In this document: in pieces, positions 33,924-58,823 of the stretch
Position numbering within the stretch: position 1 is the stretch's first letter
How the letters are laid out: each line of letters opens with the position of its first letter
Position numbers and translations under genes: made by a program
Origin: Lichenicola cladoniae
Lineage (GTDB): Bacteria > Pseudomonadota > Alphaproteobacteria > Acetobacterales > Acetobacteraceae
Direction of reading: 5' to 3'
Length of the DNA: 64,000 nucleotides
Assembly: GCF_013201075.1 (NCBI RefSeq)
Contig: NZ_CP053710.1
Location: 186,001 to 250,000 of the forward strand
Notes under the pieces: generated by a model
Database searches by the model: none
What the model was told of the DNA's origin: nothing
The model's input: only the letters and a program-made list of their open reading frames with translations

Positions 33924-33938
33924 CGGGAACTACCTACT
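33924..33938 (-). promoter_or_regulatory. 15-bp motif site A (porin/decarboxylase direction)
   Basis: GTAGGTAGTTCCCGA on the minus strand, one mismatch to the consensus GTAGGTAGTTTCCGA. Lies 110 bp before the porin GTG and is oriented toward it. Pairs divergently with site B. Confidence 0.7.
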
Positions 33939-33991
33939 TAGATACGCTCCCCTCGCTCCCGCAGCCGCCCCTGCATTACGATCGACTCGAA

Positions 33992-34006
33992 GTAAGTAGA
34001 TTCCGA
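33992..34006 (+). promoter_or_regulatory. 15-bp motif site B (antiporter direction)
   Basis: GTAAGTAGATTCCGA, two mismatches to the consensus, oriented toward the antiporter operon and about 244 bp upstream of its leader. A long 5' untranslated region would be implied if it is the promoter site. Confidence 0.65.
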
Positions 34007-34249
34007 ACGTTGTCGCGGGGTAGCTTAAGGCGTTTTCTGTTCCGGGGAGCTACGCATCTCATAGCTAGCACAGGCCGCTTGACGCTGCACGTACCGGCTT
34101 TCGTTGTCTGCGCATACGTCTCTCGTGGGAATGATCAGAAACGACAGAATCCTGTGGCTTTAGTAACGTGTACTGGCGGTGTCTGGCATCGCCCGCTCAG
34201 TCAGTTCGTGAGCACTATCTCTTCGGGCCATCGAAAGGAATACGATCCC

Positions 34250-34273
34250 ATGAATATTATTAGACTACGATGA
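34250..34273 (+). CDS. Seven-residue leader peptide coupled to the antiporter gene
   Basis: ATG at 34250 has a strong AAAGGAA ribosome site at 34234-34240 (9-nt spacing) and encodes MNIIRLR. Its TGA overlaps the antiporter ATG (ATGA). The antiporter start has no ribosome site of its own, so translation is probably coupled through this leader. Two of seven residues are Arg, the presumed substrate of the operon. Confidence 0.5.
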   Translation: MNIIRLR

Positions 34274-35760
34274 CTGCGGCCACCACAAAATCGCCCGTCA
34301 CGTTTGCAGCTTCCACTTCTAAACCGGAAGGTCCGGCCGATCGGAAGCTGGGGCTTGTTCTGCTCAGCGGCATCGTCATCAGCTCGATGATCGGCGGTGG
34401 AACGTTCAACCTTCCTCAGAACATGGCGCAGAAAGCGGGGCTTGCCGCGATCTGCATTGCTTGGGCAATGACGCTGGTCGGCATGTACTTCCTGGCGAAT
34501 AGCTTCCGGATTCTTGCTGACAAGCGGCCAGATCTGAAAGCCGGCATTTACTCGTACGCACGGGCTGGCTTCGGCTCGTTCGCCGGATTTCAGATGTCCT
34601 GGGGATATTGGCTCAGTTCGGTTTTTGGCAATGTTGCCTTCGCCGTGTTGATCATGCAGATCCTAGGCTACTTCTTCCCGATCTTTGCGACCGGACAGAA
34701 TTGGCCTTCTATCATCGGCGCGTCACTGCTGATCTGGGTGATGTGCGGCATTGTGCTGCTAGGCGTCAAGCGTACCGCCCTACTGAACGTAATGGCCAGC
34801 GTGCTCAACATCACGTCGATACTAGCAGCGCTCGTAGTTATGGCGTTTTTCGTTAGCGGTGGCATGTTCGCGTTCGACATCTGGGGTCGGGCTGGGCATC
34901 TCGGGAGCGTCTTCACCCAAGTAAAGAGCACCATGCTGGTAACGCTCTGGGTGTTCATCGGGATCGAAGCCGCAGTCGTCGTCTCGGGACGAGCGCGCTC
35001 CATGTCAAGCGTCGGACCAGCCACCTTCATCGGCCTCGGCGTCTGCACGGTGCTATACTCAGTGTTATCGATCCTGCCATTCGGGATCATGCACCAGGAT
35101 GCGCTAGCTAAGCTCGCCAATCCCTCCGCCGCCTATGTATTACAGGCCGTGGTGGGACATTGGGGAGCCGCCTTCGTAAACGTTTCCCTGCTGCTGTCAG
35201 TGTTGAGTTGCTGGCTTGCCTGGACCATCCTAGTCGCGGAGTTGCCGCTGGAAGGCGCAAAAGGGGGCGTATTCCCGAAATTTCTTGCCAATGAAAATCG
35301 CTTTCATGCGCCCGCTCCGTCACTGGTGGTTTCGTCGGTTGCGATGCAGGCATCGCTGTTTGTGGTGCTCTTTGCCCATAACGCGTGGTTGTGGTTGGTA
35401 GATATTACGGGCGTTATGATCCTTCCGCCGTATTTCGCCAGCACGCTGTACCTAAGCGTCTACGCTGCGAACCCCGCTTATGTTGCCACTCACTCCGAAT
35501 CCCGGCGCAACGCCCTGGTGACCGGCATTCTGGGGTCGATCTACGCGGCGTGGCTACTTTATGCCGCCGGTGCAGAGTTCATCCTGATGTCCACCATCAT
35601 ATTTTCGATCGGTGTGCCAGTCTTCTGGTGGGCGCGTCACGATCACGCGCCCGGCGAGCCGGTCTTCACCAGACGCGAGAAAATTGCCACCTTCTTGCTG
35701 TTGACAATCGGTATCTTGTCCATTGGACTTTTCGCCACGGGCGTGATCAGCGTCACCTGA
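34270..35760 (+). CDS. APC-family basic amino acid/agmatine antiporter (ArcD/AaxC-like)
   Basis: 496 residues with about 12 membrane helices. The first helix carries LVLLSGIVISSMIGGGTFNLPQNMA, the substrate-binding GxG-type break of APC transporters, and the family-typical FGSFAGFQMSWGYWLSSVFGNVAFAV follows. It should exchange external arginine for internal agmatine across the inner membrane. It is the first large gene of an operon with pyruvoyl arginine decarboxylase, carbamoylputrescine amidase and agmatine deiminase. An arginine:ornithine exchange role is possible from sequence alone but fits the neighbours less well. It lacks its own ribosome site (see leader peptide). Confidence 0.88.
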   Translation: MTAATTKSPVTFAASTSKPEGPADRKLGLVLLSGIVISSMIGGGTFNLPQNMAQKAGLAAICIAWAMTLVGMYFLANSFRILADKRPDLKAGIYSYARAGFGSFAGFQMSWGYWLSSVFGNVAFAVLIMQILGYFFPIFATGQNWPSIIGASLLIWVMCGIVLLGVKRTALLNVMASVLNITSILAALVVMAFFVSGGMFAFDIWGRAGHLGSVFTQVKSTMLVTLWVFIGIEAAVVVSGRARSMSSVGPATFIGLGVCTVLYSVLSILPFGIMHQDALAKLANPSAAYVLQAVVGHWGAAFVNVSLLLSVLSCWLAWTILVAELPLEGAKGGVFPKFLANENRFHAPAPSLVVSSVAMQASLFVVLFAHNAWLWLVDITGVMILPPYFASTLYLSVYAANPAYVATHSESRRNALVTGILGSIYAAWLLYAAGAEFILMSTIIFSIGVPVFWWARHDHAPGEPVFTRREKIATFLLLTIGILSIGLFATGVISVT

Positions 35761-35802
35761 GCGACTGTCCTAAACCCTGAAACTCTATTAAAGGCTTTCC
35801 AC

Positions 35803-36384
35803 ATGACTCTAGGCACCCGCTTCCCGACGCTGGGGTTCACCACCGGCGGCACTGGTGAGGCCAATGATGGAATTCCTCCCCAGCCTTACGAGACCTTTTG
35901 CTATGACTCAGCGTTGCTTGACGCCAAGATCCACAACTTCAACATCATTCCTTATACGTCGGTGCTCCCCAAAGAAATCTTTGGGCGAATTGTGCCGGTA
36001 GAGCAAGTAAAGCGACATTTCCACCATGGCGCCGTGCTGGAGGTGATCATGGCGGCGACGGGTGCGCAGCTCAGCGAGCATCGCGCGATCGCGACAGGCC
36101 TCGGTATCTGCTGGGGTAAGGACTCGAAGGGCGAGCTGATCGGCGGCTGGGTAGCTGAGTATGTCGAATACTTTCAAACACCCATCGATGACGGCATTGC
36201 CGAGGCACATGCCCACATGTGGCTGACCAAGTCGCTGAATCATGAGCTGAGTCTACGTGGTATAGAGAAGCACAGCGAGTTCAAGTTCTGGCATAACTTC
36301 CTTAATCTTACCCAGCCCTATGGCTACTGTCTGACAGCCATGGGATTTTTAAACTTCGACTACGCAGAGGCGGTCACGGTTTAG
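35803..36384 (+). CDS. Pyruvoyl-dependent arginine decarboxylase (AaxB-like)
   Basis: 193 residues. The self-cleavage site is in [14 protein letters not shown]: Thr52-Ser53, where Ser53 would become the pyruvoyl group of the alpha chain. [40 protein letters not shown] and [17 protein letters not shown] follow, as in PvlArgDC proteins. A Thr-Ser junction is the form I recall for Chlamydia AaxB. Converts arginine to agmatine and CO2. The ribosome site AAAGG precedes the ATG by about 8 nt. It is the second, non-homologous decarboxylase of the locus and sits directly between antiporter and agmatine-degrading genes, so it is probably the dedicated partner of this operon. Confidence 0.9.
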
Positions 36385-36398
36385 CGGAAGGACAGTCC

Positions 36399-37298
36399 AT
36401 GACACGCGTTGTCACCGTGGCTGCCACGCAAATGCGCTGCAGCTGGGATATAGACGACAACATCCGCCGCGCCGAAGGACTTGTACGGGCTGCGCACGCC
36501 AAGGGGGCCCAAATCATCCTGCTTCAGGAACTCTTTGGGACGCCGTATTTTTGCATCGATCAGGACTTGTCTCACCTGACACTGGCGCAGCCGGCCGACG
36601 ACAGCCGGCTGATCCAGCATTTTCAGGCGTTGGCAGCGGAACTGCACGTGGTCTTGCCGCTTAGCTTTTTCGAAAAGGCGAATCGCGCCTACTTCAACTC
36701 GCTCGCAATGATTGATGCAGACGGCGCAATATTGGGCGTTTATCGCAAAACCCATATTCCCAATGACAACGGCTACCAGGAGAAGCAGTTCTTTACGCCT
36801 GGGGACACCGGCTTCCAGGTCTGGGATACCGCCTTTGCCCGTATCGGTGTCGGAATCTGTTGGGATCAGTGGTTCCCGGAGACACAACGTAGTCTTTCTC
36901 TCCTAGGCGCTGAGCTCATCTTCCATCCCACTGCCATCGGCTCGGAACCCGGGGTGGCTACCTATGACAGCCAGCCGCATTGGACGCGCGTGCAGCAAGG
37001 CGCCGCCGGCGCAAATCTCACGCCGGTGATCGTTTCCAACCGCATCGGTACGGAGACGAGCAAGACCGCCTCCAACCTGTCGTTGACCTTTTACGGTTCG
37101 GCGTTCATTGCCGATCAAACCGGCGCGTTGGTGGCGCAGGGCGACCGCGTTACCGAGGGGGTACAGGTGCACAGCTTCGATCTGGATGCCATTGCCGTGC
37201 AACGCGACTGGTGGGGCGTCTTTCGCGATCGTCGTCCAGGCATGTATCGCACGCTATTGACGTCAGACGGTGTCCACGCCGTCGATGGCGGGATCTGA
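36399..37298 (+). CDS. aguB: N-carbamoylputrescine amidase
   Basis: 299 residues of the nitrilase superfamily with the catalytic triad E44 (LLQELFG), K117 (YRKTHIPND) and C154 (GICWDQWFPE). The IPNDNGYQEKQFFTPGDTGF and HPTAIGSEP segments are those of the plant/bacterial AguB (CPA) branch. Hydrolyses N-carbamoylputrescine to putrescine, CO2 and ammonia. Starts 15 bp after the decarboxylase stop and ends 1 bp before the next gene's GTG, so clearly in the same operon. Confidence 0.93.
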   Translation: MTRVVTVAATQMRCSWDIDDNIRRAEGLVRAAHAKGAQIILLQELFGTPYFCIDQDLSHLTLAQPADDSRLIQHFQALAAELHVVLPLSFFEKANRAYFNSLAMIDADGAILGVYRKTHIPNDNGYQEKQFFTPGDTGFQVWDTAFARIGVGICWDQWFPETQRSLSLLGAELIFHPTAIGSEPGVATYDSQPHWTRVQQGAAGANLTPVIVSNRIGTETSKTASNLSLTFYGSAFIADQTGALVAQGDRVTEGVQVHSFDLDAIAVQRDWWGVFRDRRPGMYRTLLTSDGVHAVDGGI

Positions 37299-37299
37299 G

Positions 37300-38430
37300 G
37301 TGACCCGCACTACCCTGACCAGCCGGCCAAGTTCTGACGGCTTCTGGATGCCCCCGGAATGGGCCCCCCAAGAGGCGGTGTGGATGCTGTGGCCATACCG
37401 CCCTGACAACTGGCGCGAGGCCGCGCGACCGGCGCAGGAGGCCTATGCCGCGGTCGCGGAGGCGATCATGGGCGCGACGCCGGTCATCATGGGCGTGCCA
37501 GCTGAATTCATGGCGCAGGCCGAACGCCGGCTGCCGGCTGGTATCAATCTGGTATCGATGGCGAGCGACGACGCTTGGATCCGTGATTCTGGTCCCTCTA
37601 TAGTAGTTGACACTCATGGGGAGCGGCGTGGCGTCAGTTGGATCTTTAATGCCTACGGCGGCCTCAAGGGGGGGCTCTATTCGCCGTGGGACCGCGACGC
37701 TCAGGTGAGCTCCCTCGTATGTGACCACCACCATTTCGCTCGCTACGCCGCGCCGCTTGTAATGGAAGGTGGCTCGATCCATAGCGACGGCGAGGGCACG
37801 CTGCTGGTGACCGAGGAGGTGTTGCTCAACCCGGATCGCAATCCCGCGCTGACCAAACAGCAGATTGGTGACTTCCTGGAGGACTATCTCAATATCGACA
37901 AGATCATCTGGCTTCCGTCTGGCGTGTTCGCCGACGAGACCAGTGGCCATGTCGACAACATCTGCTGTTTCTCCCGGCCCGCCGAGGTAATCCTCACCTG
38001 GACGGAGGATGCCACCGACCCGCAGGCTGCACGTTCGCAGGCGGCTCTTGCGGTGCTCGAGTGCGAAGTGGACGCCAAAGGCCGGAGCTTTAAGGTGCAT
38101 AAGGTGCAACAGCCCGGGCCTCTGACTATCAGCAACGAGGAAGCAGTAACCACCATGAGCGGGCCGGGTATGAACCGGAGAGCCGGCACCAGGCTTGCAG
38201 GCTCATATGTCAATTTCCTGATCACCAACGGTCGTCTCATTTTGCCGATGTTAGATCGCGCTACCGACGAGCAGGCGCTAAGCATGATGAGAGACATCTT
38301 TCCCAAACATGAAGTGATCGGCGTTCCTGCCCGCGAGATTCTTCTTGGCGGCGGTAATATTCACTGCATTACTCAGCAGGTTCCTGCTGGCGCATTTCTT
38401 TCATCTACCCATGGTGGGGACGGCCACTAA
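37300..38430 (+). CDS. aguA: Agmatine deiminase
   Basis: About 376 residues from the GTG at 37300 (an upstream ATG at 37270 would overlap aguB by 29 bp). Contains FWMPPEWAPQEAVWMLWPYRPDNW, SDDAWIRDSGPS, VMEGGSIHSDGEGTLL, ADETSGHVDNICCF and the catalytic Cys in LGGGNIHCITQQVPAG near the end. Converts agmatine to N-carbamoylputrescine and ammonia. The reading frame is complete, but its stop TAA is exactly the target duplicated by the IS5 element that follows, so the operon's original 3' end is displaced. Confidence 0.94.
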   Translation: MTRTTLTSRPSSDGFWMPPEWAPQEAVWMLWPYRPDNWREAARPAQEAYAAVAEAIMGATPVIMGVPAEFMAQAERRLPAGINLVSMASDDAWIRDSGPSIVVDTHGERRGVSWIFNAYGGLKGGLYSPWDRDAQVSSLVCDHHHFARYAAPLVMEGGSIHSDGEGTLLVTEEVLLNPDRNPALTKQQIGDFLEDYLNIDKIIWLPSGVFADETSGHVDNICCFSRPAEVILTWTEDATDPQAARSQAALAVLECEVDAKGRSFKVHKVQQPGPLTISNEEAVTTMSGPGMNRRAGTRLAGSYVNFLITNGRLILPMLDRATDEQALSMMRDIFPKHEVIGVPAREILLGGGNIHCITQQVPAGAFLSSTHGGDGH

Positions 38431-39293: not shown

Positions 39294-39296
39294 TAA

Positions 39297-40048: not shown

Positions 40049-40060
40049 TGAGTCCGGGCC

Positions 40061-40075
40061 CTAGGTATTTTCCGG
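40061..40075 (+). promoter_or_regulatory. 15-bp motif site C
   Basis: CTAGGTATTTTCCGG, three mismatches to the consensus GTAGGTAGTTTCCGA, oriented toward the unknown membrane protein whose ATG is 68 bp downstream. Confidence 0.65.
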
Positions 40076-40142
40076 GGCTTGGCCAGCCCGTTAAATCGCG
40101 CTCTACAGATCTTAGAAGTCTTGATCAATGACTTAGCCAGAA

Positions 40143-44121: not shown

Positions 44122-44715
44122 TCAGATCGGCTTCCGTTCAGCTCGGCGAACCATGGTGGCAATCTCGTCGCTGACGACAGCTATGGGCGGGAGGCCGCTT
44201 AGGCACTCCAGCTTTCCTTGCGCGTGATAATACGCCAATAGCGGCGACGCAGTACGATGATAGACAGCTAATCTGTTCTTAAGTGTCTCAGCGTTATCGT
44301 CCTGCCGGCCTGATCCGGCTGCCTCGCGCTGTTTGACCCTTTTCACAAGAATATCGTCCACAATCTCGAGACTGATTACGAGGTCAATCTCTGCATGTTG
44401 TCCGGCAAGTATGTCATCGAGTTCCTTTGCTTGCCTAATCGTTCGGGGAAATCCGTCGAAGATGGCGCCGTGGGCACAGTCTGCTATCAATAGTCGCTCC
44501 TTTATAAGCCCTACCACAATGTCATCTGACACTAGGTCACCGTCGACGAGGGTTTTATCAACCGATGCAGCAAGCGCCGAACCCGACGCTGCTGCGTCGC
44601 GTAACATATCGCCTGTCGAGATCCTCGGAGTATTCATAAGTTTGGAAAGTAATTCTCCTTGTGTTCCTTTGCCCGCGCCTGGCGGTCCCAGCAAAACAAT
44701 GTTCACAATTTCCAC
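44122..44715 (-). CDS. adk: Adenylate kinase (short form)
   Basis: 197 residues from a GTG at 44715. P-loop GPPGAGKGTQ at 10-19, NMP-binding PRISTGDMLRDAAASGS, GAIFDGFPRTIRQAKELD and the short LID typical of the non-zinc form. Interconverts 2 ADP and ATP + AMP. The location outside a ribosomal protein operon, and within a set of stress genes with a shared promoter motif (site D), suggests an extra, stress-induced adenylate kinase rather than the housekeeping one; that is inference. Confidence 0.92.
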   Translation of the reverse strand: MEIVNIVLLGPPGAGKGTQGELLSKLMNTPRISTGDMLRDAAASGSALAASVDKTLVDGDLVSDDIVVGLIKERLLIADCAHGAIFDGFPRTIRQAKELDDILAGQHAEIDLVISLEIVDDILVKRVKQREAAGSGRQDDNAETLKNRLAVYHRTASPLLAYYHAQGKLECLSGLPPIAVVSDEIATMVRRAERKPI

Positions 44716-44872
44716 CCCGTCGGTGCGTGGCTGATTGCTTTATGCCGATGCGGCAAAAGGTAAGGTTGGCTTGTTCATTCAGTTGCTCTGGCCAGCGCGA
44801 AAGTTGATGCAACAGATACCTTAGGCTTCGACTTGGCAGACAATCCATGACGATTACTACAACGGGGAAGGC

Positions 44873-44887
44873 TCGGAAACTACTCAC
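44873..44887 (-). promoter_or_regulatory. 15-bp motif site D (adk direction)
   Basis: GTGAGTAGTTTCCGA on the minus strand, two mismatches to the consensus, oriented toward adk (158 bp to its GTG). Divergent pair with site E, 55 bp apart. Confidence 0.65.
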
Positions 44888-44942: not shown

Positions 44943-44957
44943 CTAGGTAGTTTCCGA
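44943..44957 (+). promoter_or_regulatory. 15-bp motif site E (NAD(P)HX repair direction)
   Basis: CTAGGTAGTTTCCGA, one mismatch to the consensus. A possible -10 TATAGT lies at about 44984. Oriented toward the operon starting with the 24-residue leader at 45077. Confidence 0.7.
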
Positions 44958-45076
44958 TGCTCCTTGGTATGGGCATCAACAACTATAGTCCAAGGGTAAC
45001 CGAGTTATCCGGTTCACGCTTGGCTCGCGCACTTCCGGTGGACGGGGCGGCGACAACGCGGAAGGCAAGGTGTTCA

Positions 45077-45151
45077 ATGAACGGTTTGGGTATTTCGGGA
45101 TATCAATGGATTGAATTCGTTCAATCGATACGTTCTCTGCCTCAGCGATGA
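45077..45151 (+). CDS. 24-residue leader peptide coupled to the NAD(P)HX repair gene
   Basis: ATG at 45077 with AAGG 6 nt upstream, encoding MNGLGISGYQWIEFVQSIRS and four more residues. Its TGA overlaps the next ATG as ATGA. The following gene has no ribosome site of its own. Function, if any, is probably translational coupling. Confidence 0.4.
   Translation: MNGLGISGYQWIEFVQSIRSLPQR
45111..45124. promoter_or_regulatory. Palindrome resembling an FNR/FixK box
   Basis: TTGAATTCGTTCAA, spaced like TTGAT-N4-ATCAA but with A for T in both half-sites. It lies inside the leader frame, 24 bp before the NAD(P)HX repair gene, downstream of site E. Confidence 0.3.
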
Positions 45152-46653: not shown

Positions 46654-47636
46654 TGAAGGCAATGGTGTTGAGCGAGCCGAAGACGCCGCTGGTTTGGACC
46701 GAGCTTCCGGATCGCCATCCCGGGCCCGGGCAGATCCGGGTGAAGGTGCTGGCTTGCGGTGTCTGCCGTACCGACCTTCATGTGCTTGATGGCGAATTGC
46801 CCAACTCGAAAACGCCGATCATTCCGGGCCATGAGATTGTCGGCCGTATCGACGAGGTCGGTCCGGGTGTGACTGAGCTTAAGCTCGGCGAGCGTGTTGG
46901 CATTCCATGGCTCGGCCACACGTGCGGCGTGTGTCCTTATTGCGAGGAGAAGCGCGAGAACCTCTGTGATGCACCGCTCTTCACTGGCTACACGCGCGAC
47001 GGTGGGTTCGCAACCGCGACCATCGCCGATGCGCGCTTCGCCTTTCCTTTAGGCGAAACCGGCAGCGACGTATCACTCGCGCCGCTTCTCTGCGCCGGCC
47101 TAATAGGCTGGCGCTCTCTAGCACTTGCCGGCGAAGGGAAGAATATCGGGCTCTACGGATTCGGTGCTGCGGGCCATATCATCGCGCAAGTCGCCAATTG
47201 GCAGGGGCGAAAGGTTTTCGCCTTTACACGGCCGGGTGATAAGGCGAACCAAGCCTTTGCTAGGAGCTTAGGCGCCAGTTGGGCCGGTGGTTCTGACGAG
47301 ATGCCGCCGGACCCTTTGGATGCGGCGATCATCTACGCAACCGTTGGAGACCTCGTGCCGCTCGCGCTGAAGGCGGTAAAGAAGGGCGGACGGGTCGTCT
47401 GCGCCGGTATTCACATGAGCAGCATTCCGGGCTTCCCTTACGAAATCCTCTGGGAAGAGCGCCAATTGGTCTCTGTGGCCAACCTCACTCGGCAGGACGG
47501 CATCGACTTCTTCGACCAGATCCCCAAGATGGGAATCGTTGTCAAAACGACAACCTACCCACTGGAGGACGCGAACATCGCCCTTGCCGATTTGCGCGCT
47601 GGACGTTTCGAGGGGGCAGCGGTTCTTATACCGTGA
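46650..47636 (+). CDS. Zinc-dependent alcohol dehydrogenase
   Basis: 328 residues of the medium-chain family. Catalytic zinc ligands C39 (ACGVCRTDLH) and H61 (PGHEIVG); structural zinc cluster CGVCPYCEEKRENLC; NAD-binding LYGFGAAGHIIAQVA; C-terminal IALADLRAGRFEGAAVLIP. Closest in style to AdhA-type NAD alcohol dehydrogenases that sit in fermentative or low-oxygen clusters. The ATGA overlap with nnr shows translational coupling. It would reoxidise NADH by aldehyde reduction or oxidise ethanol. Confidence 0.9.
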   Translation: MMKAMVLSEPKTPLVWTELPDRHPGPGQIRVKVLACGVCRTDLHVLDGELPNSKTPIIPGHEIVGRIDEVGPGVTELKLGERVGIPWLGHTCGVCPYCEEKRENLCDAPLFTGYTRDGGFATATIADARFAFPLGETGSDVSLAPLLCAGLIGWRSLALAGEGKNIGLYGFGAAGHIIAQVANWQGRKVFAFTRPGDKANQAFARSLGASWAGGSDEMPPDPLDAAIIYATVGDLVPLALKAVKKGGRVVCAGIHMSSIPGFPYEILWEERQLVSVANLTRQDGIDFFDQIPKMGIVVKTTTYPLEDANIALADLRAGRFEGAAVLIP

Positions 47637-49360: not shown

Positions 49361-49375
49361 GTAGGTAGTTTCCGA
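49361..49375 (+). promoter_or_regulatory. 15-bp motif site F (FAD protein direction)
   Basis: GTAGGTAGTTTCCGA, identical to the consensus, 92 bp before the start of the FAD-binding protein and oriented toward it. Confidence 0.75.
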
Positions 49376-49466
49376 TACTACTACCCGCAACGTCCGCCAC
49401 TAAGTTCATGATCATCGATCGGATGCCAGCAGATAGGCTAGGCAGACGGTCCGCCGGAGGTTCGTC

Positions 49467-50954
49467 ATGACCGAAGATCTGCCTGCCTGGAACAGTGAGT
49501 ACGATGTCATCGTCATCGGCTATGGCTTTGCCGGCGCTACCGCTGCGATCACCGCCCATGATGCCGGCGCGAAGGTCCTGCTCATAGAAAAGGCCCCCGA
49601 AGCCGACAAAGGCGGTAACAGCCGGGTATCCGCCAATCTCGTCTTCTGGCCGAATGACGTGGCGTTGGCCAAGGCGTATTTTGTGGCGCTGGCTGGCCCT
49701 TACATGGACGACATCTCAAATACTATGGTCGACGTCTGGGCGAACGAGATGTACGCCAACCGGACTTGGCTTGAAGGTCTTGGCATGACGCCGTTCGAAC
49801 TTCCATATGTAGAATTCCCCGAAATGGCTGGCTCAGAGTGCGTTCGGGTATTGATGAACGGCCCGGGGCCAATGGGCGGAGAACGCCTCTGGCGGATCAT
49901 CGAGGCTGCCGTCTCGGCACGCGACATCGATGTCCTCTATGAAGCGCCTGCGATCAACCTGATAAAGGATTGCAGCAATATCGTGGGTGTCATGACCAAA
50001 CAACGCGGCAAGAACGTCGCTATCAAAGCAACCCGCGCCATCGTATTAACCTGCGGCGGCTTTGAGAACAATCCGGCTATGGTCCGAAACTACGTAGATG
50101 GCCTGCCGAGGATCTTCCCGAACGGAACGCCGTACAATACCGGCGACGGCATTCGTATGGGGCTGGAAGTGGGTGCTCAGCTTTGGCACATGAACAACAT
50201 TTCGGGTCCACTGCTATCGTTTAAGGCACCCGAGATTGCGGTCGCGCAGTGGCTTAATCTACCGCATGGCAAAAGCTATCTCTTCGTCGCTAGCGACGGG
50301 TCGCGCTTCACGATGGAAGGCGATCCTTGTCTCACTGGTGACCTGCACGGCAAAGTCAAACGTCATGGCCAATGGGGACAGCAGGCACTACCGGTGCCGA
50401 TCCATATGATCTTTGATGAAACGTTCCGCAAATCCGGCCATATCGGTAAAGCCACTACGGACTGGGATGTCAGCCACGGGAATCTCTACGACTGGAGCGA
50501 CGACAATATTCGCGAAATCGAAAAGGGCTGGATCAAACGGGCGGACACACTCAGCGAACTCGCTGACTTGATCGGCATTCCCGCAGAGGCGTTGGAAGCC
50601 AGTGTGGTCCGCTTCGACGAATTCGCTTCCGGTGGCGTGGACGCAGACTGGAACCGGGCTGCCGATAAGATGGCACCCCTCGATACGCCGCCCTTCTATG
50701 CCATGGAACTGACTCCGGCATTCGTAAATACTCAGGGCGGCCCTTGCCGCAACGAGAACGCACAGGTAATGGGCGCTGACGGCAACCCAATTGGACGGCT
50801 TTACTCCGCGGGAGAACTCGGTTCGATCTATTCGTTCCTCTACCAAGCCGGCGGCAACATCGGTGAGTGTTTCGCCTTTGGCCGGATCGCTGGCCGGAAT
50901 GCTGCGGCGCAGACACCCGCGCCAAGTATGGCCAAGCCATTCGCTTTCACCTGA
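49467..50954 (+). CDS. FAD-dependent fumarate-reductase/tricarballylate-dehydrogenase-like flavoprotein
   Basis: 495 residues of the FAD_binding_2 family, with GGAGG 7 nt before the ATG. FAD site YDVIVIGYGFAGATAAITAHDAG at 12-34 and LLIEKAP; LTCGGFENN; catalytic-region features such as NTGDGIRMGLEVGAQLWHM and TQGGPCRNENAQVMG; C-terminal YSAGELGSIYSFLYQAGGNIGECFAFGRIAG. Members include fumarate reductase flavoproteins, urocanate reductase, tricarballylate dehydrogenase and ketosteroid dehydrogenases; I cannot choose by eye. No FMN or heme domain is attached, so an external electron donor is needed, and the overlapping TrxR-like gene is a candidate. Confidence 0.85.
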   Translation: MTEDLPAWNSEYDVIVIGYGFAGATAAITAHDAGAKVLLIEKAPEADKGGNSRVSANLVFWPNDVALAKAYFVALAGPYMDDISNTMVDVWANEMYANRTWLEGLGMTPFELPYVEFPEMAGSECVRVLMNGPGPMGGERLWRIIEAAVSARDIDVLYEAPAINLIKDCSNIVGVMTKQRGKNVAIKATRAIVLTCGGFENNPAMVRNYVDGLPRIFPNGTPYNTGDGIRMGLEVGAQLWHMNNISGPLLSFKAPEIAVAQWLNLPHGKSYLFVASDGSRFTMEGDPCLTGDLHGKVKRHGQWGQQALPVPIHMIFDETFRKSGHIGKATTDWDVSHGNLYDWSDDNIREIEKGWIKRADTLSELADLIGIPAEALEASVVRFDEFASGGVDADWNRAADKMAPLDTPPFYAMELTPAFVNTQGGPCRNENAQVMGADGNPIGRLYSAGELGSIYSFLYQAGGNIGECFAFGRIAGRNAAAQTPAPSMAKPFAFT

Positions 50955-51886
50955 TGGACGCCATCGCCGCGCCCCTCGACTGTCTTGTGATCGGCGGCGG
51001 CCCAGCAGGCCTCACGGCGGCAACATACCTAGGCCGCTTTCGCCGGCGCGTAACGGTAATTGACAAAGGCTGGAGTCGCGCTGAATGGATCACGCGCAGC
51101 CGCAACGTTCCGGGGTTCCCCGCCGGAGTGGGCGGCCCGGTGCTACTCGACCTCATGCGAAGCCAGGCGCGCTGCTATGATGCTGAACTTCAGCTCGGCA
51201 CGATCGACACCCTGAGTCGGGGTTCAGACGGGCTGTTCACCGCCAGACTGGCAAATACGCAGCTCACTGCTCACACGGTTCTGCTCGCCAGCGGTGTTGT
51301 TGAAAACAAGCCGCCATTAGCGCATCTTGCCGATGCGGTGAAGCGCGGCTTGATCCGGACCTGTCCAGTCTGTGATGGTTATGAAGCGATCGACAAGTGT
51401 ATCGCCGTCTTCGGCAACGGGGAGCATGCTGCCAGAGAGACGCTCTTTCTTCGCACATATTCGTCGCGGATCTCGCTGCTGCTCACACTTGCAGATACGG
51501 CAGCCCTATCTGATCAAACGAAGGCGGCATTAGAAGCAGCCGGGATCGAACTCAACCATGTGGTTGTTGGCTCGGTCGGCATCGATCAGGACGGCATCAC
51601 TGTACTAAGCGCCGAAGATGGGCGACAACACCACTTCGACTTGGTCTATTCGGCGTTCGGGATGACACCCCAGAGCTCACTGGCTGCGGCGCTTTCCGCA
51701 CGTGTCAACGAACTCGGACGTCTTTTCGTCAACGAACATCAGCAGACGTCAGTCCAAGGGCTCTACGCCGCCGGCGATCTCGTGCGCGGTCTAAACCAAA
51801 TCAGCGTTGCTGCGGGCGAAGCAGCGATCGCAGCGACAGCAATTCACAATAGCCTACCGCGGTCGTTCGCGTCTCAAATTGCGTAA
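50954..51886 (+). CDS. Thioredoxin-reductase-like NAD(P)H/FAD oxidoreductase
   Basis: 310 residues from the ATG overlapping the previous stop (TGATG). FAD motif CLVIGGGPAGLTAATYLG at 10-27, the redox-active CPVCDG with C137 and C140 (TrxR proteins have CATCDG at the same place), NAD(P) motif IAVFGNGEHAARETLFL and the final LYAAGDLVRGLNQISVAAGEAAIAA. Length matches low-molecular-weight TrxR. Being translationally coupled to a flavoprotein without its own donor site suggests it passes electrons to it; a role as a genuine thioredoxin reductase is the alternative. Confidence 0.88.
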   Translation: MDAIAAPLDCLVIGGGPAGLTAATYLGRFRRRVTVIDKGWSRAEWITRSRNVPGFPAGVGGPVLLDLMRSQARCYDAELQLGTIDTLSRGSDGLFTARLANTQLTAHTVLLASGVVENKPPLAHLADAVKRGLIRTCPVCDGYEAIDKCIAVFGNGEHAARETLFLRTYSSRISLLLTLADTAALSDQTKAALEAAGIELNHVVVGSVGIDQDGITVLSAEDGRQHHFDLVYSAFGMTPQSSLAAALSARVNELGRLFVNEHQQTSVQGLYAAGDLVRGLNQISVAAGEAAIAATAIHNSLPRSFASQIA

Positions 51887-51938
51887 AGTCCAATTCGGGC
51901 CACGCCGGGTGGCTCATCTGAGCCTGCTACGGAAGGGT

Positions 51939-52499
51939 CTATAATTCCGTCCGCTCCCCGGTATTTGCCGGCATTTGCGAAATGGCACGCACTAGGTCTG
52001 CACGGCTGACGATCCCCACCATCCGGCCGTTCCGCAGGATCGGTAGCCGCTTGATGCGGTGACGGGTCAGCAAATCGGACAGTTGGGGCAGTGTGGCCGT
52101 GTCTGGGGCAGTGATAACGGGAGTCGTCATCACGTCGCGAGCCTGACGATGATCCTGACGCACGTAGTCGGTAAATTCCGGAGCTAGGTCATTTCCTTCG
52201 GCAATTAGGGACAACCACCAAGCACGTCTCAGCCGGTTGCTTTCACCAAAGGGGCGCAGCAGGTCACCTTCGCTTACCAAGCCGACAAGGACACCGGACT
52301 GATCACAGACCGGCACCGCGCTGATATCGTGTGTCGCTAGGACCCTAGCGATGGCCGCTATAGTGGCATCGGGAGTGACAGAATAGACTTCACGGGTCAT
52401 TATTGCAGATGCGTCGTCCAACATGGCGTTCTTGAATCCTCGAAAACGCTTTGCGATGAACTCTCGCAAAGTGGCCGGAGACCATAAGGTCTGAAGCAC
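51939..52499 (-). CDS. CBS-domain protein
   Basis: 186 residues. Two CBS domains: about 30-88 (IMTREVYSVTPDATIAAIARVLATHDISAVPVCDQSGVLVGLVSEGDLL) and 128-180 (VMTTPVITAPDTATLPQLSDLLTRHRIKRLPILRNGRMVGIVSRADLV). Such pairs bind adenine nucleotides and sense energy state. An N-terminal basic segment (REFIAKRFRGFKNA) precedes them; an alternative start is the ATG at 52424. Site G lies 49 bp upstream of the 52499 start. Confidence 0.9.
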   Translation of the reverse strand: MLQTLWSPATLREFIAKRFRGFKNAMLDDASAIMTREVYSVTPDATIAAIARVLATHDISAVPVCDQSGVLVGLVSEGDLLRPFGESNRLRRAWWLSLIAEGNDLAPEFTDYVRQDHRQARDVMTTPVITAPDTATLPQLSDLLTRHRIKRLPILRNGRMVGIVSRADLVRAISQMPANTGERTEL

Positions 52500-52547
52500 A
52501 ACCAGAGTGTGGCTGTGTCTATCGCCTAACTCGAGCCTAGATCAGAA

Positions 52548-52562
52548 TCGGAAACTACCTAT
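52548..52562 (-). promoter_or_regulatory. 15-bp motif site G (CBS gene direction)
   Basis: ATAGGTAGTTTCCGA on the minus strand, one mismatch to the consensus, oriented toward the CBS gene. Confidence 0.72.
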
Positions 52563-52695
52563 CGCCGGGGCGTCGAGAACCTGGACAGATGCTCTAGTGG
52601 TTGGAATTAAAACGCCTTGCGGTCGTTAACCGGTAGTCGGTTCCACCGTCTGACCAATTATAGCTGCTATGATCGCTACGCTATGCCGGTATTGC

Positions 52696-53118
52696 TCAAA
52701 CAACCGGCGACGGGCGTAGTAGCCGAAAGCCCGTAGGATGGGGCAGCGCCGAGTGACCCTTGGTAACAATATCGATTACGATCGCCAGTGCGCTCAACAG
52801 GTCAGCTGGCCGGTAGGGCTTGCTTATAAAGCCGACACCGTGCGCAGCTTTAAGCTGTGCGCCATTCACATGGTCGCTCGCATATAATATACCGAGCCCA
52901 TTTAGGCCGCCCAATTCACCGACTATTTCTGTGCCTACTCGACCATCGGCAAGCTGCAGGTCAATAAGGGCATAGTCCGGCTTGTGAAGACTGCAAGGCT
53001 TAACCGCTTCCGTCACCGTACGGGCGATTCCTATGACAGCATAGCCCTCCAATACGAGTAGGGTCTCTACGAGGTCGGCAATCATGAGGTCGTCTTCTAC
53101 AATGAGAATACGGGTCAT
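52696..53118 (-). CDS. Stand-alone response-regulator receiver protein
   Basis: 140 residues: a single REC domain with the acidic pocket VEDD (8-10), phospho-acceptor D53 (YALIDLQLADG) and the conserved Lys in GFISKPYRPADLL. No output domain. It could be a phosphate sink or shuttle between the two kinases of this region. Site H lies 84 bp upstream. Confidence 0.92.
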   Translation of the reverse strand: MTRILIVEDDLMIADLVETLLVLEGYAVIGIARTVTEAVKPCSLHKPDYALIDLQLADGRVGTEIVGELGGLNGLGILYASDHVNGAQLKAAHGVGFISKPYRPADLLSALAIVIDIVTKGHSALPHPTGFRLLRPSPVV

Positions 53119-53201
53119 ATGGTTACTTGTCTTCGGTCAGGGTACGAGGGCCTTGGCTTTTGTTAGAACCTTTTACAGATCCCTGCATATTATTGACTGG
53201 G

Positions 53202-53216
53202 TCGGAATATACCTAC
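53202..53216 (-). promoter_or_regulatory. 15-bp motif site H (response regulator direction)
   Basis: GTAGGTATATTCCGA on the minus strand, two mismatches to the consensus. It overlaps the last codons of the LOV kinase gene and is oriented toward the receiver gene. An AATAAT stretch follows about 8 bp downstream. Confidence 0.68.
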
Positions 53217-55516
53217 GTCACGTATTGTTCATCCCAGTTTGCTGCCAGGGCAAGACGGGCTAAGGCCGGAAGCGACTTGGTATTCGTCTTACGCATGATC
53301 GATGCCCGGTGATTCTCGACCGTTCGCTGGCTGATTCCAAGGTCGACAGCAATATTCTTGCTGGGGTGTCCCGCGAGGACCATGGCCATGATCTCCCGCT
53401 GACGGACGGTTAGATCTGCGACCAAGCTCGCCGCCTTCTCCCGGCGGTCGGCGAGATCCTCAGAGCTATGCATGTGAGTGAGCGCGTTCCTTAGACTGGC
53501 AATCAGATCGGAACCACCAACCGGCTTCTCTATGAAGTCGGACGCCCCTGCTTTCATAGCCTGGACCGCCATAGCTACGTCACTGGCACCCGTAATCATG
53601 ATCACCGGCACGACATCTCCGTCTTCACGAAGCTTTTGAAGGAGCGCGAGGCCGCTCATGCCCGGTAGGTATGCATCCAGCAGTAAGCATGAATTACGTC
53701 CTGGCCTGTAGACGGCGCAGAACGCTTCCGAACTAGCATAGGCCTGAACAACTCCCCCTGCACTCTCAATCACGGACCCCATGGCATCGATCACGTCTCG
53801 ATTGTCATCAATCACGAATATTGTCGCCTCATTGAGGCTGAGATCGGTGCCCTTCTTGGGGGGCGCTGACGCGGCGCGGCTGGAGCGCGAGACAGACAGG
53901 CTACGCTGGATGGCGGCGGTCAGCTCCCTCAGCTTGACGGGTTTTGTCAACCGCACGGCGTTCTGACTACCGGTCCCATGCGCCGCATGGGTCGAGGCGT
54001 CACCGCTTAAAATAATGACTGGTATCTCGGCGCTCAAGTGCCCCTGCAGTCTCGTCGCGATTTCGGGGCCGCTCCGACTTGTTTCGTGCTTTGAGTCCGT
54101 CACAAATATGTCCGGCCGCATACCTTCGACCTCTATTAGCTCCAGCGCTTCTAGCCCGTTATGTGCCAACACGACCCGATAACCTTCGTCTCCGAGCAAG
54201 TTCTGTAAAATCTCACCGGTTTCCAAGTCGTCTTCGATCAGCAAAATGCTGCTTGCCTCCGCAAGGGGCGGGCTTCCCCGCCCTTTGAATTGCCGCACAA
54301 CTGGGCTTGCAGACGGCGCCGAATCGGCAGCTTGTAGAAGCTCGATTGCAAACACCGATCCTTTGCCAACCTCGGAGCGTACGCGTATGCGATGACCGAG
54401 CAGATTTCCGAACCGATGGACGATCGACAGACCGAGCCCCAACCCCCTTGTCGACCGCCCCTCCTGGGTATCAAGCTGGTGATACTCCCGAAAGATAGTC
54501 TCAACAGCGTTTTCCGGTATACCAATCCCGGTATCCCAGACTTCAAGGCTGAGTGCGGTACCGTTGCGGCGGCAGCCGACAAGGACCTTTCCTTCAGGGC
54601 TATATTTAATGGCGTTCGCAAGCAGGTTTCTAATCATCTGCTCGAGCAGGCGACGATCGCTTTTTACAAAGAGACTACATGGAACTACCCGCAGCAGGAC
54701 ACCTTTAGCCTGTGCATCGTAGACAAACCCATCTTTGAGTCGATCGAGTATGTCGTTGATGCTAAATTCTGTGATATTTGTTCTCACGGCGCCCGCTTCG
54801 ACCTGGTTGAGGTCGAGAAGCGAGTTCAGCATGCTTGACATTGACTCAAGCGTCTGGCCCAGTCGTAGAACAAGTCTTTCGGCTGGATCGCCTTGGATGG
54901 TTCTGGCCAGGATACCTTGCAGTAAGACCAGTGATTGTAGTGGCTGACGGATATCGTGGCTGGCCACGGCAAGGAAGCGTGACTTTTCGGCATTCGCAGC
55001 GTCTGCCTGATGGCGAGCATCTTTCTCGGTAAGAAGGTCGGCATTGTGACGCTCTAAGAACTGCAGCCGGTCTAGTTCGCCCGTTACATCAAGCTGACTA
55101 GCAAAGAAATATATTAGATCGCCGCTTGCGTCGTGAAGCGGCACCATGTGCAGCCGATTCCAAAACGGTGTCCCGTCTTTGCGATAGTTGCGTACCTCAA
55201 GATCGAGTGGCTTCCCGGATCGCGCTGCGGCGCGCATTAGGGCTACCTTGGCAGGTTCAGTTTCGGGCCCCTGCAAAAAGCGGCAGTTTCGGCCTATGCT
55301 CTCCTCGCGGGAATAGCCAGTTAAATTGCAGAATGCGTCATTGACAAACGCGATCGGATTGTCAGCTTCCCTTGGATTGGTGATGACGACTGGCATGCGT
55401 GTCGAGCACACGATGGCGGCAAACGGATCACTGCTAGCGCCTACACGTCCGAGCGCCGCATCCATGTGGGCAAGCGCTCCTCTGTCCGTTAATCGGTCGG
55501 TCTGATCATAGGACAT
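53213..55516 (-). CDS. LOV-domain hybrid histidine kinase with FixJ/LuxR-type DNA-binding output
   Basis: 767 residues. LOV domain (about 30-150) with the flavin-adduct motif GRNCRFLQ, Cys78, and the usual NPIAFVNDAF and YRKDGTPFWNRL; HisKA with H187 (FLAVASHDIRQPLQ); HATPase_c (NLLANAIKYSPEG, WDTGIGIP, GLGLGLSIV); a first receiver (425-545, D474 in FVTDS); a second receiver (565-685, D614 in LLLDAYLPGMSG, K664 in FIEKPVG); and a C-terminal LuxR/FixJ helix-turn-helix (701-760: LTVRQREIMAMVLAGHPSKNIAVDLGISQRTVENHRASIM). The final receiver-HTH unit is FixJ-like. The protein thus joins sensor, phosphorelay and transcription factor in one cytoplasmic chain. Expected input is blue light (or redox, as for some LOV proteins). 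It may bind the shared 15-bp motif. Confidence 0.93.
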   Translation of the reverse strand: MSYDQTDRLTDRGALAHMDAALGRVGASSDPFAAIVCSTRMPVVITNPREADNPIAFVNDAFCNLTGYSREESIGRNCRFLQGPETEPAKVALMRAAARSGKPLDLEVRNYRKDGTPFWNRLHMVPLHDASGDLIYFFASQLDVTGELDRLQFLERHNADLLTEKDARHQADAANAEKSRFLAVASHDIRQPLQSLVLLQGILARTIQGDPAERLVLRLGQTLESMSSMLNSLLDLNQVEAGAVRTNITEFSINDILDRLKDGFVYDAQAKGVLLRVVPCSLFVKSDRRLLEQMIRNLLANAIKYSPEGKVLVGCRRNGTALSLEVWDTGIGIPENAVETIFREYHQLDTQEGRSTRGLGLGLSIVHRFGNLLGHRIRVRSEVGKGSVFAIELLQAADSAPSASPVVRQFKGRGSPPLAEASSILLIEDDLETGEILQNLLGDEGYRVVLAHNGLEALELIEVEGMRPDIFVTDSKHETSRSGPEIATRLQGHLSAEIPVIILSGDASTHAAHGTGSQNAVRLTKPVKLRELTAAIQRSLSVSRSSRAASAPPKKGTDLSLNEATIFVIDDNRDVIDAMGSVIESAGGVVQAYASSEAFCAVYRPGRNSCLLLDAYLPGMSGLALLQKLREDGDVVPVIMITGASDVAMAVQAMKAGASDFIEKPVGGSDLIASLRNALTHMHSSEDLADRREKAASLVADLTVRQREIMAMVLAGHPSKNIAVDLGISQRTVENHRASIMRKTNTKSLPALARLALAANWDEQYVT

Positions 55517-55912
55517 GAACGGTTTCTCGCTCTATGGACGTCATCCAGCGCGGGTGCGCGTTCCAGTCTCGCCGTCGGCGAGTTCGATGATGTAGGCGGT
55601 TACCGCTTCTCTGTTACTCAAGCGTCCAAAATTTAAAGTTTGCCTAGACGGCGGTTTGCTTTAGATTAAGACTGCGGTCTCGATTGGCCGCACGGTAGAA
55701 CATCGACGGGTCGACGCATCGCGCACCGGCTATTTTCTGCTTGACTCCATTAGCGTCTACTCCAACCGGAAACTTTCCAGAGGCTTCGCCGAAGCTGATC
55801 ATTAAGCACAAAGACTTGATAACAACAAGCGATGATGTGTCATAGTGTGAAACTGAGACCAGGTTCGGAGACGGCGAACATCGACACCGCATCCGCGTGG
55901 GGGAGGGAGTCG

Positions 55913-56098
55913 TTGACCCCTAGTCCGATTTGGTTCGAAACGATCCGCGTATCAGTCTGGCTCATCGCGAACGCACCGCGGGAGACCCTCGAGTCGTTGG
56001 TTCGATATACGACGCTCTGGTCGCCGGTCGCCAATACGATCCACAGCCCTGTCCACCTCGACGTGACTCCTGAGCCGGAAGCTACCGCGGTAACCTGA
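55913..56098 (+). pseudogene. OsmC-like C-terminal fragment
   Basis: Reads SPIWFETIRVSVWLIANAP, LESLVRYTTLWSPVANTIHS and PVHLDVTPE; the SPVANT stretch resembles the end of OsmC/Ohr-type peroxidases. No start or peroxidatic Cys region precedes it in frame. The remaining DNA between the LOV kinase start and this fragment (55517-55912) holds nothing I recognise. Confidence 0.4.
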
Positions 56099-56127
56099 TT
56101 GCTATGTTTCCGCTGGGGGTGGTTACT

Positions 56128-57060: not shown

Positions 57061-57300
57061 GGCTACCGGCAAACAGATGACCCGGCTTACAGGGGTCAGC
57101 CACCGCTATGGTCGCGTTGTAGCGCTGGATGCCCTCACGCTGGACATTCCGTAGGAAGTCATGATCGGGTTCATCGGCCCAGACGGGTTTGGCAAATCAA
57201 CACTTCTCGGCCTGATCTCGGGGACCAAGCGGGTCCAGGGTGGATAGGTCTGGGTGCTGGACGGAGACATGGCGCAGCCAGAGCGCGAACCGCCATCTGC
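57058..57300 (+). pseudogene. ABC transporter ATP-binding remnant (RbbA/YhiH-like)
   Basis: Reads MTRLTGVSHRYGRVVALDAL, TLDIP, a TAG, EVMIGFIGPDGFGKSTLLGLISGTKRVQGG (Walker A), another TAG, and VWVLDGDMAQPE. The order after an HlyD adaptor matches the yhiI-rbbA type efflux operon. Only the first 80 residues remain; the rest, up to about 57800, has no recognisable gene. Confidence 0.7.
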
Positions 57301-57817
57301 AGCACCGAACGCATCGGAATCTGCTGTTTTTGTACTTTACTGCCATACCTTGTGGGCCCGGAGTCAGTTTTACGAATGATATACCGGCCAGCTTTAGCGA
57401 TCGCCACTTCGGCACCAGTCTAGCCAATGCTCCACTCTCTCATTCGTTACGCTGTCATTGTGGACCGGGGACATGGGGTGATTAATCAAGCCAAAGGACG
57501 CAACCGGTTCTGGGACCCGATGACCGACCGGACCATCTTCTCAAAACATGCGTGTAATCCCCGCAAGCCGAGCCGCCGGTTGTCAATTGGGGGGTAGGGT
57601 ATGCACCATCTCAATCAACATCGGAGGAAGAAGTCGATGAAGAAGCGGATCCCTGCCCGGCAGCACTCGAGGTGTCGCTAAAATAGTTACATTGGTAAAC
57701 ACTGATGGTATTATCGCCGCCAGTTAATTTTGTTGATGTTCGAGGCGACGTGCACCCCAGGGCCTGCTACCGTGAGAGATGCATGCCATACTCGATCACC
57801 CTCAAGCCGAGAGTGAG

Positions 57818-58681
57818 ATGCATTCGATGTCAATCCAGACAATATTCGTCCCGCTACAGAAGGAAGATCTTCTATTGCCGAAGCTAGGATATGCTCTAGC
57901 CCTCGCAGGCGGTCTGGATTCCAGTATAGAGGTAGGTTTTATTCATGAAGGGCACGATCCAGCAACAATCGATGTTAATTTCACCGGCGGTGACGTGGCA
58001 AAAGGCTTTGCTCTGAACGCGGAATATAGGGATCAGATAGACGTCGATGCACTACGCCGCGACCTTTCGACCTGGCCCGAGACATATCGTCCGCCTGCCG
58101 GCGGTAGACATCCCAGGATCGAGATGCACGAATACTGGAAAGGTATTGATAATGTTCTCGCACGGGTGGGACGGTTAAGGGACCTGATCCTGACAGGCCC
58201 TTGCCGTTCACGCTCAAACATCTTCGCAGACTCAATGAGCCGTGCGTCGCTTTTAATGAGCGCGCGACTGATCCTCGGGCTTGGAGACGTACAAGTTGAG
58301 CCGGCTCGTATGCTGGAGCGCGTCGTCATCGCATGGGATGGAGGCGCCAGCGCCACCCGCACCGTCGTTCAAGCTCTCCCTATTCTCAGGCTCGCCGTTA
58401 ACGTAAGCGTGGTGGTCATCGGCAACCCTTCATCATCGGGTCCCAGCACCGACGATCTGGTGGACTATCTCAGTGCGCGCCAAGTAACTGCCCAAGCCGT
58501 CTCACATCCAAAAGATCTTCACACAACCGGTAGTGCTCTTTTGAAATACCTCGACCTGGAAAAGGCTACACTGCTCCTCATGGGAGCCTACAGTCATAAC
58601 CGGACGGGAGAACTTATCTTTGGTGGTACAACAGTCGACGTTCTTGAACGGATAAGAATGCCTGTCTTAACCTCATTCTAA
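57818..58681 (+). CDS. Universal stress protein (two-domain type)
   Basis: 287 residues from the ATG at 57818 (ATGs at 57779 and 57827 are alternatives). The first half is a diverged USP fold (MSIQTIFVPLQKEDLLLPKLGYALALAGGLDSSIEVGFIH). The second half has the clear C-terminal pattern VVIAWDGGASATRTVVQALPIL and LLMGAYSHNRTGELIFGGTTVDVLERIRMPVL, including the G-2-x-9-G-type ATP loop. Cytoplasmic nucleotide-binding stress protein, common in low-oxygen and dormancy gene sets. No copy of the 15-bp motif was found upstream. Confidence 0.88.
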   Translation: MHSMSIQTIFVPLQKEDLLLPKLGYALALAGGLDSSIEVGFIHEGHDPATIDVNFTGGDVAKGFALNAEYRDQIDVDALRRDLSTWPETYRPPAGGRHPRIEMHEYWKGIDNVLARVGRLRDLILTGPCRSRSNIFADSMSRASLLMSARLILGLGDVQVEPARMLERVVIAWDGGASATRTVVQALPILRLAVNVSVVVIGNPSSSGPSTDDLVDYLSARQVTAQAVSHPKDLHTTGSALLKYLDLEKATLLLMGAYSHNRTGELIFGGTTVDVLERIRMPVLTSF

Positions 58682-58789
58682 GAACAGAATTACCGCGCAG
58701 CATACCTTGCTCATCCCACGTGCGTTTAAAAGAATACTACGCAATGGAGACCGGTTCGACGGCATTGACACCGCTTCGCTGTGTAGCGT

Positions 58790-58823
58790 GTAGGTATATT
58801 CCGCAGGAACGGCCGGTTATAAT
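58790..58823 (+). promoter_or_regulatory. 15-bp motif site I plus TATAAT -10 (Crp/Fnr gene)
   Basis: GTAGGTATATTCCGC at 58790-58804 (three mismatches to consensus) followed 13 bp later by a perfect TATAAT at 58818-58823. The motif thus covers the -35 region, as expected for an activator that replaces a -35 box. Confidence 0.7.

What the first reader, a model, noticed from the sequence alone, without database searches (positions are those of the whole stretch)
33924..58804. Nine oriented copies of a 15-bp motif define a putative regulon
Seen: sites at 33924(-), 33992(+), 40061(+), 44873(-), 44943(+), 49361(+), 52548(-), 53202(-) and 58790(+). The consensus is GTAGGTAGTTTCCGA with 0-3 mismatches. 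All lie in promoter regions or intergenic gaps (one touches the 3' end of a gene), and all point toward the downstream gene. Targets are the porin/decarboxylase, antiporter operon, unknown membrane protein, adk, nnr-adh, FAD-TrxR pair, CBS, receiver and Crp/Fnr. Two pairs are divergent (A/B, D/E). Inference: binding site of one FixJ/LuxR-type activator that coordinates the arginine locus and the stress/fermentation island.
Basis: partly seen in the sequence, partly recalled or inferred. Interest (0 to 1): 0.88.

Follow-up and report, generated by a model that had tools for sequence, protein, structure and literature searches.

The report
FixJ-class promoter motif of stress island
A short DNA sign in front of some twenty stress and fermentation genes marks a set of genes that travels with its own one-piece sensor-regulator, a relative of the oxygen-response regulator FixJ; here one copy of that regulator carries a domain of the blue-light-sensing kind.

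Summary
Ten matches lie in the window against 0.62 expected. The refined element is an 18-bp motif, TRRGTAGTTTCCGAnnCT. In the 6.06-Mb genome all 19 sites with at most one mismatch lie in one 111-kb stretch of a 354-kb contig, 14 of them beyond the window. A -10-like TA sits 40-41 bases after the motif's first T in 83 of 136 sites from other genomes, so the motif would cover about -52 to -35, a class II activator position.

The motif tracks a FixJ-like DNA-binding domain that ends a hybrid histidine kinase: present in 50 of 55 genomes with that domain and 27 of 340 without, and in 9 of 9 named genome loci. The core equals a published FixJ site at 11 of 12 bases. The window's 767-aa protein is a LOV variant; a CheB-CheR form lies in the same island.

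Of its nine sites five are strong, two moderate, one weak but well placed, one doubtful. Binding, light response and target control are predictions.

The parts
33919..33936 (-). motif site, 1 mismatch, toward porin and arginine decarboxylase genes
   Evidence: TA at offset 40
33993..34010 (+). motif site, 2 mismatches, toward permease/agmatine gene row
   Evidence: no TA at the expected -10 offset
40062..40079 (+). motif site, 2 mismatches, toward a 167-aa ORF without Pfam match
   Evidence: TA two bases late (offset 42)
44869..44886 (-). motif site, 0 mismatches, toward adk; divergent with the next
   Evidence: no TA at the expected -10 offset
44944..44961 (+). motif site, 0 mismatches, toward nnr-adh
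   Evidence: TATAGT at offset 40
49362..49379 (+). motif site, 0 mismatches, toward FAD oxidoreductase and TrxR-like pair
   Evidence: TA at offset 39; orthologous promoter in Polymorphobacter, L049:19864, also 0 mismatches
52544..52561 (-). motif site, 0 mismatches, toward CBS-domain gene
   Evidence: TA at offset 40
53198..53215 (-). motif site, 3 mismatches, touching the 3' end of the regulator gene and pointing to the single-domain receiver
   Evidence: TAAAAG at offset 40 (read); a site also touches the regulator's 3' end at L049:11068; receivers in L113, L150 and L154 have a site upstream
58790..58804 (+). weak, doubtful site upstream of the Crp/Fnr gene
   Evidence: only; no CT tail; absent
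53213..55516 (-). candidate regulator: LOV-HisKA-HATPase-REC-REC-GerE, 767 aa
   Evidence: Pfam; LOV part best matches blue-light-activated histidine kinase 3t50; family co-occurrence
52696..53118 (-). single-domain receiver, predicted target
   Evidence: Pfam
32408..33814 (-). BBP2 porin, predicted target
30001..32343 (-). PLP-type Orn/Lys/Arg decarboxylase, downstream of the porin gene on the same strand
34270..38430 (+). gene row: amino-acid permease, pyruvoyl-type arginine decarboxylase, carbon-nitrogen hydrolase, PAD_porph (agmatine-deiminase type)
   Evidence: one transcript is inferred
44122..44715 (-). adenylate kinase, predicted target
45148..47636 (+). nnr (NAD(P)H-hydrate repair) and alcohol dehydrogenase, predicted target
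49467..51886 (+). FAD-binding oxidoreductase and thioredoxin-reductase-like pair, predicted target
51939..52499 (-). CBS-domain protein, predicted target

Best explanation
The motif is the binding site of a FixJ-class activator domain that sits at the end of a one-piece hybrid histidine kinase (sensor - HisKA - HATPase - REC - REC - GerE). In this genome two such proteins lie in the island: a LOV (blue-light type) form at window 53213-55516 and a CheB-CheR-PAS form at C3:321249-325628. On a signal the kinase would phosphorylate its own receivers; the activated GerE domain would bind TRRGTAGTTTCCGAnnCT at about -52 to -35, in the place of a -35 box, and recruit RNA polymerase to a promoter that keeps its -10 element (class II activation). 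It would switch on an island of energy-shortage and stress genes: arginine/agmatine, alcohol dehydrogenases, phosphoketolase and acetate kinase, DnaK, GroES, BON, PRC, band-7 and a P-type ATPase. Shown: the motif, its confinement, its phasing to a -10-like element, and its co-occurrence with the regulator family. Inferred: binding, activation rather than repression, the signal, and which of the two regulators acts.
For: Confinement: 19 of 19 sites with at most 1 mismatch in 111 kb of 6.06 Mb. Phased -10: TA at offset 40 or 41 in 83 of 136 sites from other genomes, at most 11 of 136 at any other offset from 18 to 69; on C3 12 of 29 at offset 40. Co-occurrence, 395 genomes of the order: 50 of 55 with the HTH have the motif, 27 of 340 without; 436 of 500 sites are in the former. 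385 genomes of the class: 18 of 19 against 19 of 366. Named genome loci: 9 of 9 with the regulator carry 24 sites; 67 of 67 loci with other kinase/receiver relatives carry none; backwards control 0. Plasmid records: 9 of 9 with the regulator have matches at up to 2 mismatches, 2 of 2 with fixJ only have none. Core agrees with the S. meliloti fixK-promoter FixJ site quoted in PMC4999443 at 11 of 12 bases. HTH parts 48-52% identical to S. meliloti FixJ; best solved relative of the receiver-HTH profile is FixJ 5xso.
Against: 5 of 55 order genomes, 1 of 19 class genomes (G409) and 1 of 2 further genomes found in the phylum set (G987) have the HTH but no site at 1 mismatch. Ten order genomes outside the member cut have 2-10 sites; one of them, G209, has 8 sites and a 54% HTH in a 1466-aa frame that my cut left out, the others were not followed up. 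In two of the nine plasmid records the sites barely pass or fail the backwards control (Asticcacaulis 3 against 2, Phyllobacterium 3 against 8). Of the five strong window sites one has no TA near the expected -10 offset and one has it one base early. Counts are not corrected for shared ancestry. Neither regulator gene has a site of 3 or fewer mismatches pointing at its own start here. No binding, expression or start-site data.
Confidence: 0.85

Rival explanations
1. The motif is bound by another regulator that merely travels with the island, such as the window's Crp/Fnr protein or the free FixJ-type regulator at C3:109971-110759.
For: Both are coded on the same contig.
Against: In 9 of 9 named loci and 50 of 55 genomes the partner searched for, the hybrid kinase with this HTH, is present with the motif; in G574 and G655 the genome's only site lies 98 and 46 bp past the HTH match. 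The free regulator's HTH is 39% identical to both island HTHs and lies 109 kb outside the site cluster. The core resembles FixJ sites. Co-occurrence of the Crp/Fnr protein or the free regulator was not tested.
Confidence: 0.08
2. The motif is part of a promoter read by an alternative sigma factor rather than an activator site.
For: It lies at a fixed distance from a -10-like element.
Against: It reaches to about -52, resembles FixJ sites and tracks an HTH protein. Sigma-factor co-occurrence was not tested.
Confidence: 0.04
3. The sites are leftovers of a dispersed repeat or insertion element.
For: Transposase-like ORFs lie among them; eight identical 2-mismatch copies, TGAGCAGTTTCAGAAGCT, on five contigs look repeat-borne.
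Against: Outside the motif and the -10-like columns the flanks of 27 sites share no sequence; the identical copies are a separate set.
Confidence: 0.02

Closest known systems
FixLJ two-component system and FixJ sites of Sinorhizobium meliloti
   Same: REC-GerE output with 48-52% identical HTH; site core shared at 11 of 12 bases with the fixK-promoter site, and like the SELEX class GTAGTTTCCC (PMC4999443, passages).
   Different: Kinase and output are one chain with two receivers; the sensor is LOV or CheB-CheR-PAS; the right part of the site is CGAnnCT; far more promoters than the one to four FixJ targets given there; the S. meliloti pB record with fixLJ has 0 of these sites at up to 2 mismatches.
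low-oxygen-activated (lxa) locus of Burkholderia cenocepacia
   Same: A locus of metabolism, stress and transport genes with six universal stress proteins, upregulated together in low oxygen (PMC9104464 and PMC6127331, passages). The Caballeronia plasmid locus here has alcohol dehydrogenases, a USP, slipin and arginine deiminase around the regulator.
   Different: In the passages read a CRP-family protein, BCAM0049, is proposed as oxygen regulator and B. dolosa FixLJ controls its homologue fixK; those passages mention no CheB-CheR hybrid and no such motif. Homology to the lxa locus was not tested.
LOV blue-light histidine kinases (PDB 3t50, 6ph3, 6ph4)
   Same: LOV domain with the stretch GRNCRFLQ; best PDB matches.
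   Different: Here LOV precedes a kinase fused to two receivers and a FixJ-like HTH.

Membership tests
FixJ-type output (REC-GerE) | FixJ-like receiver plus GerE HTH | tested here: met
FixJ-type output (REC-GerE) | binds a FixJ-class site | tested here: inconclusive
   site core shared and co-occurrence strong; no binding data
FixLJ system | separate FixL kinase with a heme PAS sensor | tested here: not met
   kinase and output in one chain; LOV or CheB-CheR-PAS N-terminus. Heme binding by the PAS domain of the CheB-CheR form was not testable
FixLJ system | control of fixK and nif genes | not tested
   only a doubtful site precedes the Crp/Fnr gene; nif genes were not searched for
LOV blue-light histidine kinase | LOV domain with the cysteine stretch GxNCRFLQ | tested here: met
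LOV blue-light histidine kinase | light-dependent kinase activity | not testable with these tools
   needs protein
lxa-type low-oxygen island | induced by low oxygen | not testable with these tools
   gene content only

The most novel reading that the evidence does not exclude
A stress-and-fermentation regulon scattered through Alphaproteobacteria, on plasmids in several of them and in at least one betaproteobacterium, is run by self-contained CheB-CheR-PAS-kinase-FixJ proteins; in the window's genome a sensor swap has put a LOV domain on the same output, so that blue light can drive or damp an energy-shortage and acid-stress island.
Probability: 0.4. Interest if true: 0.75.

Novelty: new variant of a known kind. 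Interest (0 to 1): 0.64.

Why it matters
It ties a family of CheB-CheR hybrid kinases, annotated in the records only as chemotaxis protein CheB or CheR methyltransferase, to a precise DNA site and to their likely target genes, so the role of many island genes can be tested at once. It is also a natural case in which one DNA-binding output carries different sensors (CheB-CheR-PAS or LOV), and of a dedicated regulon that appears with its regulator on different replicons and in two bacterial classes, comparable in kind to a dormancy regulon (comparison recalled). I found no paper on it, but the search was limited to open-access papers and to the listings shown: 20 of 262 papers for the core letters, 15 of 25 for longer forms, and the word searches (1, 3 and 0 papers).

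Tried and rejected
Rejected: the genome-wide 3-mismatch 15-mer as evidence, because it is not enriched over its control. Rejected: the tenth window site at 50083 and the Crp/Fnr site at 58790 as firm members. Rejected: repeat or IS origin. Tried: a tree of 28 kinase-to-HTH cores to place the LOV protein; it falls in an unresolved fork, so a sensor swap within the family fits (its core is 50% identical to the CheB-CheR form of the same island from residue 166 on) but its history is not resolved. Tried: a look for further LOV members by the NCRFL signature; none in the other 27 cores or in the 16 stretches (the sets overlap; some are truncated or masked). Of the hits only part was read in full length. 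Tried: papers on the motif and on the CheB-type regulator; only unrelated titles in the listings shown. One search, on LOV kinases, was seen as a listing only. The two structure predictions allowed were not used.

Limits of the counts. The ORF-avoidance test uses crude longest-ORF calls. With the records' own annotation, tables read by eye against the 18 sites in those five loci, 16 of 18 sites point to an annotated gene within about 400 bp; the misses are L052:10958 and L053:10191. Three further sites, in L055, have no annotation to compare with. In the class set a single site in a genome is weak evidence by itself, since 19 of 366 non-members have one or more, and G656 has 1 site against 3 in its backwards control.
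Full report
Observation. The pattern search gives 10 window matches with up to 3 mismatches against 0.62 expected; the nine reported sites are among them. The window is C3:186001-250000 of a 6.06-Mb genome in 8 contigs. On the whole genome 16 sites have at most 2 mismatches to the 15-mer; 15 lie in C3:219923-331123 and one in C1. At 3 mismatches the pattern is no more frequent than its backwards control (80 against 104), so only good matches count.

Refined motif. Of the 30 C3 matches, 27 were aligned (dropped: the two far-off ones at 60705 and 85739, and the intragenic window site 50083). They give TRRGTAGTTTCCGAnnCT, with no other conserved flank except T, A and A columns about 40 bases on. 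With this 18-mer all 19 sites with at most 1 mismatch lie in C3:219919-331122, 5 in the window and 14 beyond it. Eight identical 2-mismatch copies of TGAGCAGTTTCAGAAGCT on five contigs look like a repeat and were set aside.

Promoter geometry. On C3 it is 12 of 29 at offset 40, sites with up to 2 mismatches. If TA begins the -10 hexamer, the motif covers about -52 to -35, the place of a class II activator (inference). Sites lie inside ORFs of 100 aa or more in 45 of 155 cases against 84% of random places; 87 of 155 have an ORF start within 350 bp downstream, 55 of 155 in the opposite direction, random places 15% either way. With the records' own annotation 16 of 18 sites in five plasmid loci point to a gene (by eye).

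The partner protein. The genome has 8 GerE domains. Two lie in the site cluster: the window's LOV-HisKA-HATPase-REC-REC-GerE protein and a CheB-CheR-PAS-HisKA-HATPase-REC-REC-GerE protein at C3:321249-325628. Their HTH parts are 73% identical to each other and 52% and 48% identical to S. meliloti FixJ. A search with the 70-aa HTH in 395 genomes of the order gave 88 genomes at E 1e-13; I took as members those at 62% identity or more (55 genomes), a cut placed after seeing the list; it left out some long frames at 54-60% identity, among them G209 with 8 sites. Of the 55, 50 have at least one motif (at most 1 mismatch); of the other 340, 27 do; 436 of 500 sites lie in the 55. In 385 genomes of the class, with the cut of 1e-17 set before that search, it is 18 of 19 against 19 of 366. 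The two sets share the window genome and four relatives. A third set, 388 genomes of the phylum, gave two further members: G1105 (56% HTH in a 192-aa frame) has one site, 82 bp past the HTH match, and G987 has none. Nine plasmid records with the family member all have sites at up to 2 mismatches, 3 to 36 each; Asticcacaulis has 3 against 2 in the backwards control and Phyllobacterium 3 against 8; two fixJ-only records have none. Nine of nine named genome loci with the regulator carry 24 sites in the fetched stretch; 67 of 67 loci with other relatives carry none.

Conserved promoters. The FAD-TrxR pair has a 0-mismatch site starting 105 bases before the start codon in the window and 107 in Polymorphobacter megasporae. 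The site that touches the 3' end of the regulator gene (53198 here) has a counterpart at L049:11068 in Polymorphobacter. Single-domain receivers like the window's 52696-53118 have a site upstream in L113, L150 and L154; the one in L050 has its site about 400 bp away, outside the 350-bp limit used. The receiver may be a phosphate sink or feedback part (inference).

Targets beyond the window. Sites with at most 1 mismatch precede DnaK, two BON-domain proteins, two alcohol dehydrogenases, a membrane transport protein, a HAD/GH65 pair, a band-7 protein, a 2891-aa GH94 protein, phosphoketolase, a SHOCT protein with triosephosphate isomerase behind it, acetate kinase and a PRC-barrel protein; sites with 2 mismatches precede a cation P-type ATPase, GroES, a second PRC-barrel protein and an AAA_33 kinase. 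With the window's arginine, adh, nnr and adk genes this reads as fermentation plus damage control in energy shortage (inference).

The LOV sensor. The N-terminal domain matches blue-light-activated histidine kinases best (3t50, 6.3e-38) and holds GRNCRFLQ. From residue 166 on the protein is 50% identical to the CheB-CheR form. No other LOV member was seen among the cores compared. A light input is plausible but untested; LOV proteins may also answer to redox state (recalled).

Comparison with the known. PMC4999443 (passages) reports two SELEX classes for FixJ, GTAGTTTCCC and GTAMGTAG, and the fixK-promoter site TAAGTAATTTCCCTTA; the core TRRGTAGTTTCC agrees with the latter at 11 of 12 places and continues differently. 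That paper lists four FixJ targets in Rhizobiales and one in Caulobacterales. I therefore file the output domain as FixJ-type and the system as a one-piece variant, not as FixLJ. The lxa locus of Burkholderia is the nearest island in content that I know (passages); homology was not tested. Whether C3 is a plasmid was not tested.

Noticed in passing
30001-32343 and 35803-36384: Two arginine decarboxylases of different families, a PLP type (OKR_DC_1) and a pyruvoyl type (PvlArgDC), stand on either side of a divergent promoter region, with an agmatine-deiminase-type gene and a carbon-nitrogen hydrolase.
   Followed up: partly
   Followed up: partly
38658-39284 and 41594-42766: Transposase-like ORFs sit among the sites; the second region matches Roseomonas plasmid transposases at about 78%.
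   Followed up: no
47724-48800: A PAS-HisKA_2 kinase gene lies downstream of nnr-adh on the same strand and could share the transcript.
   Followed up: no
L052 (Caballeronia sp. SBC2 plasmid): A betaproteobacterial plasmid carries the regulator, six sites and stress genes of a similar kind, suggesting transfer of the unit between classes.
   Followed up: partly
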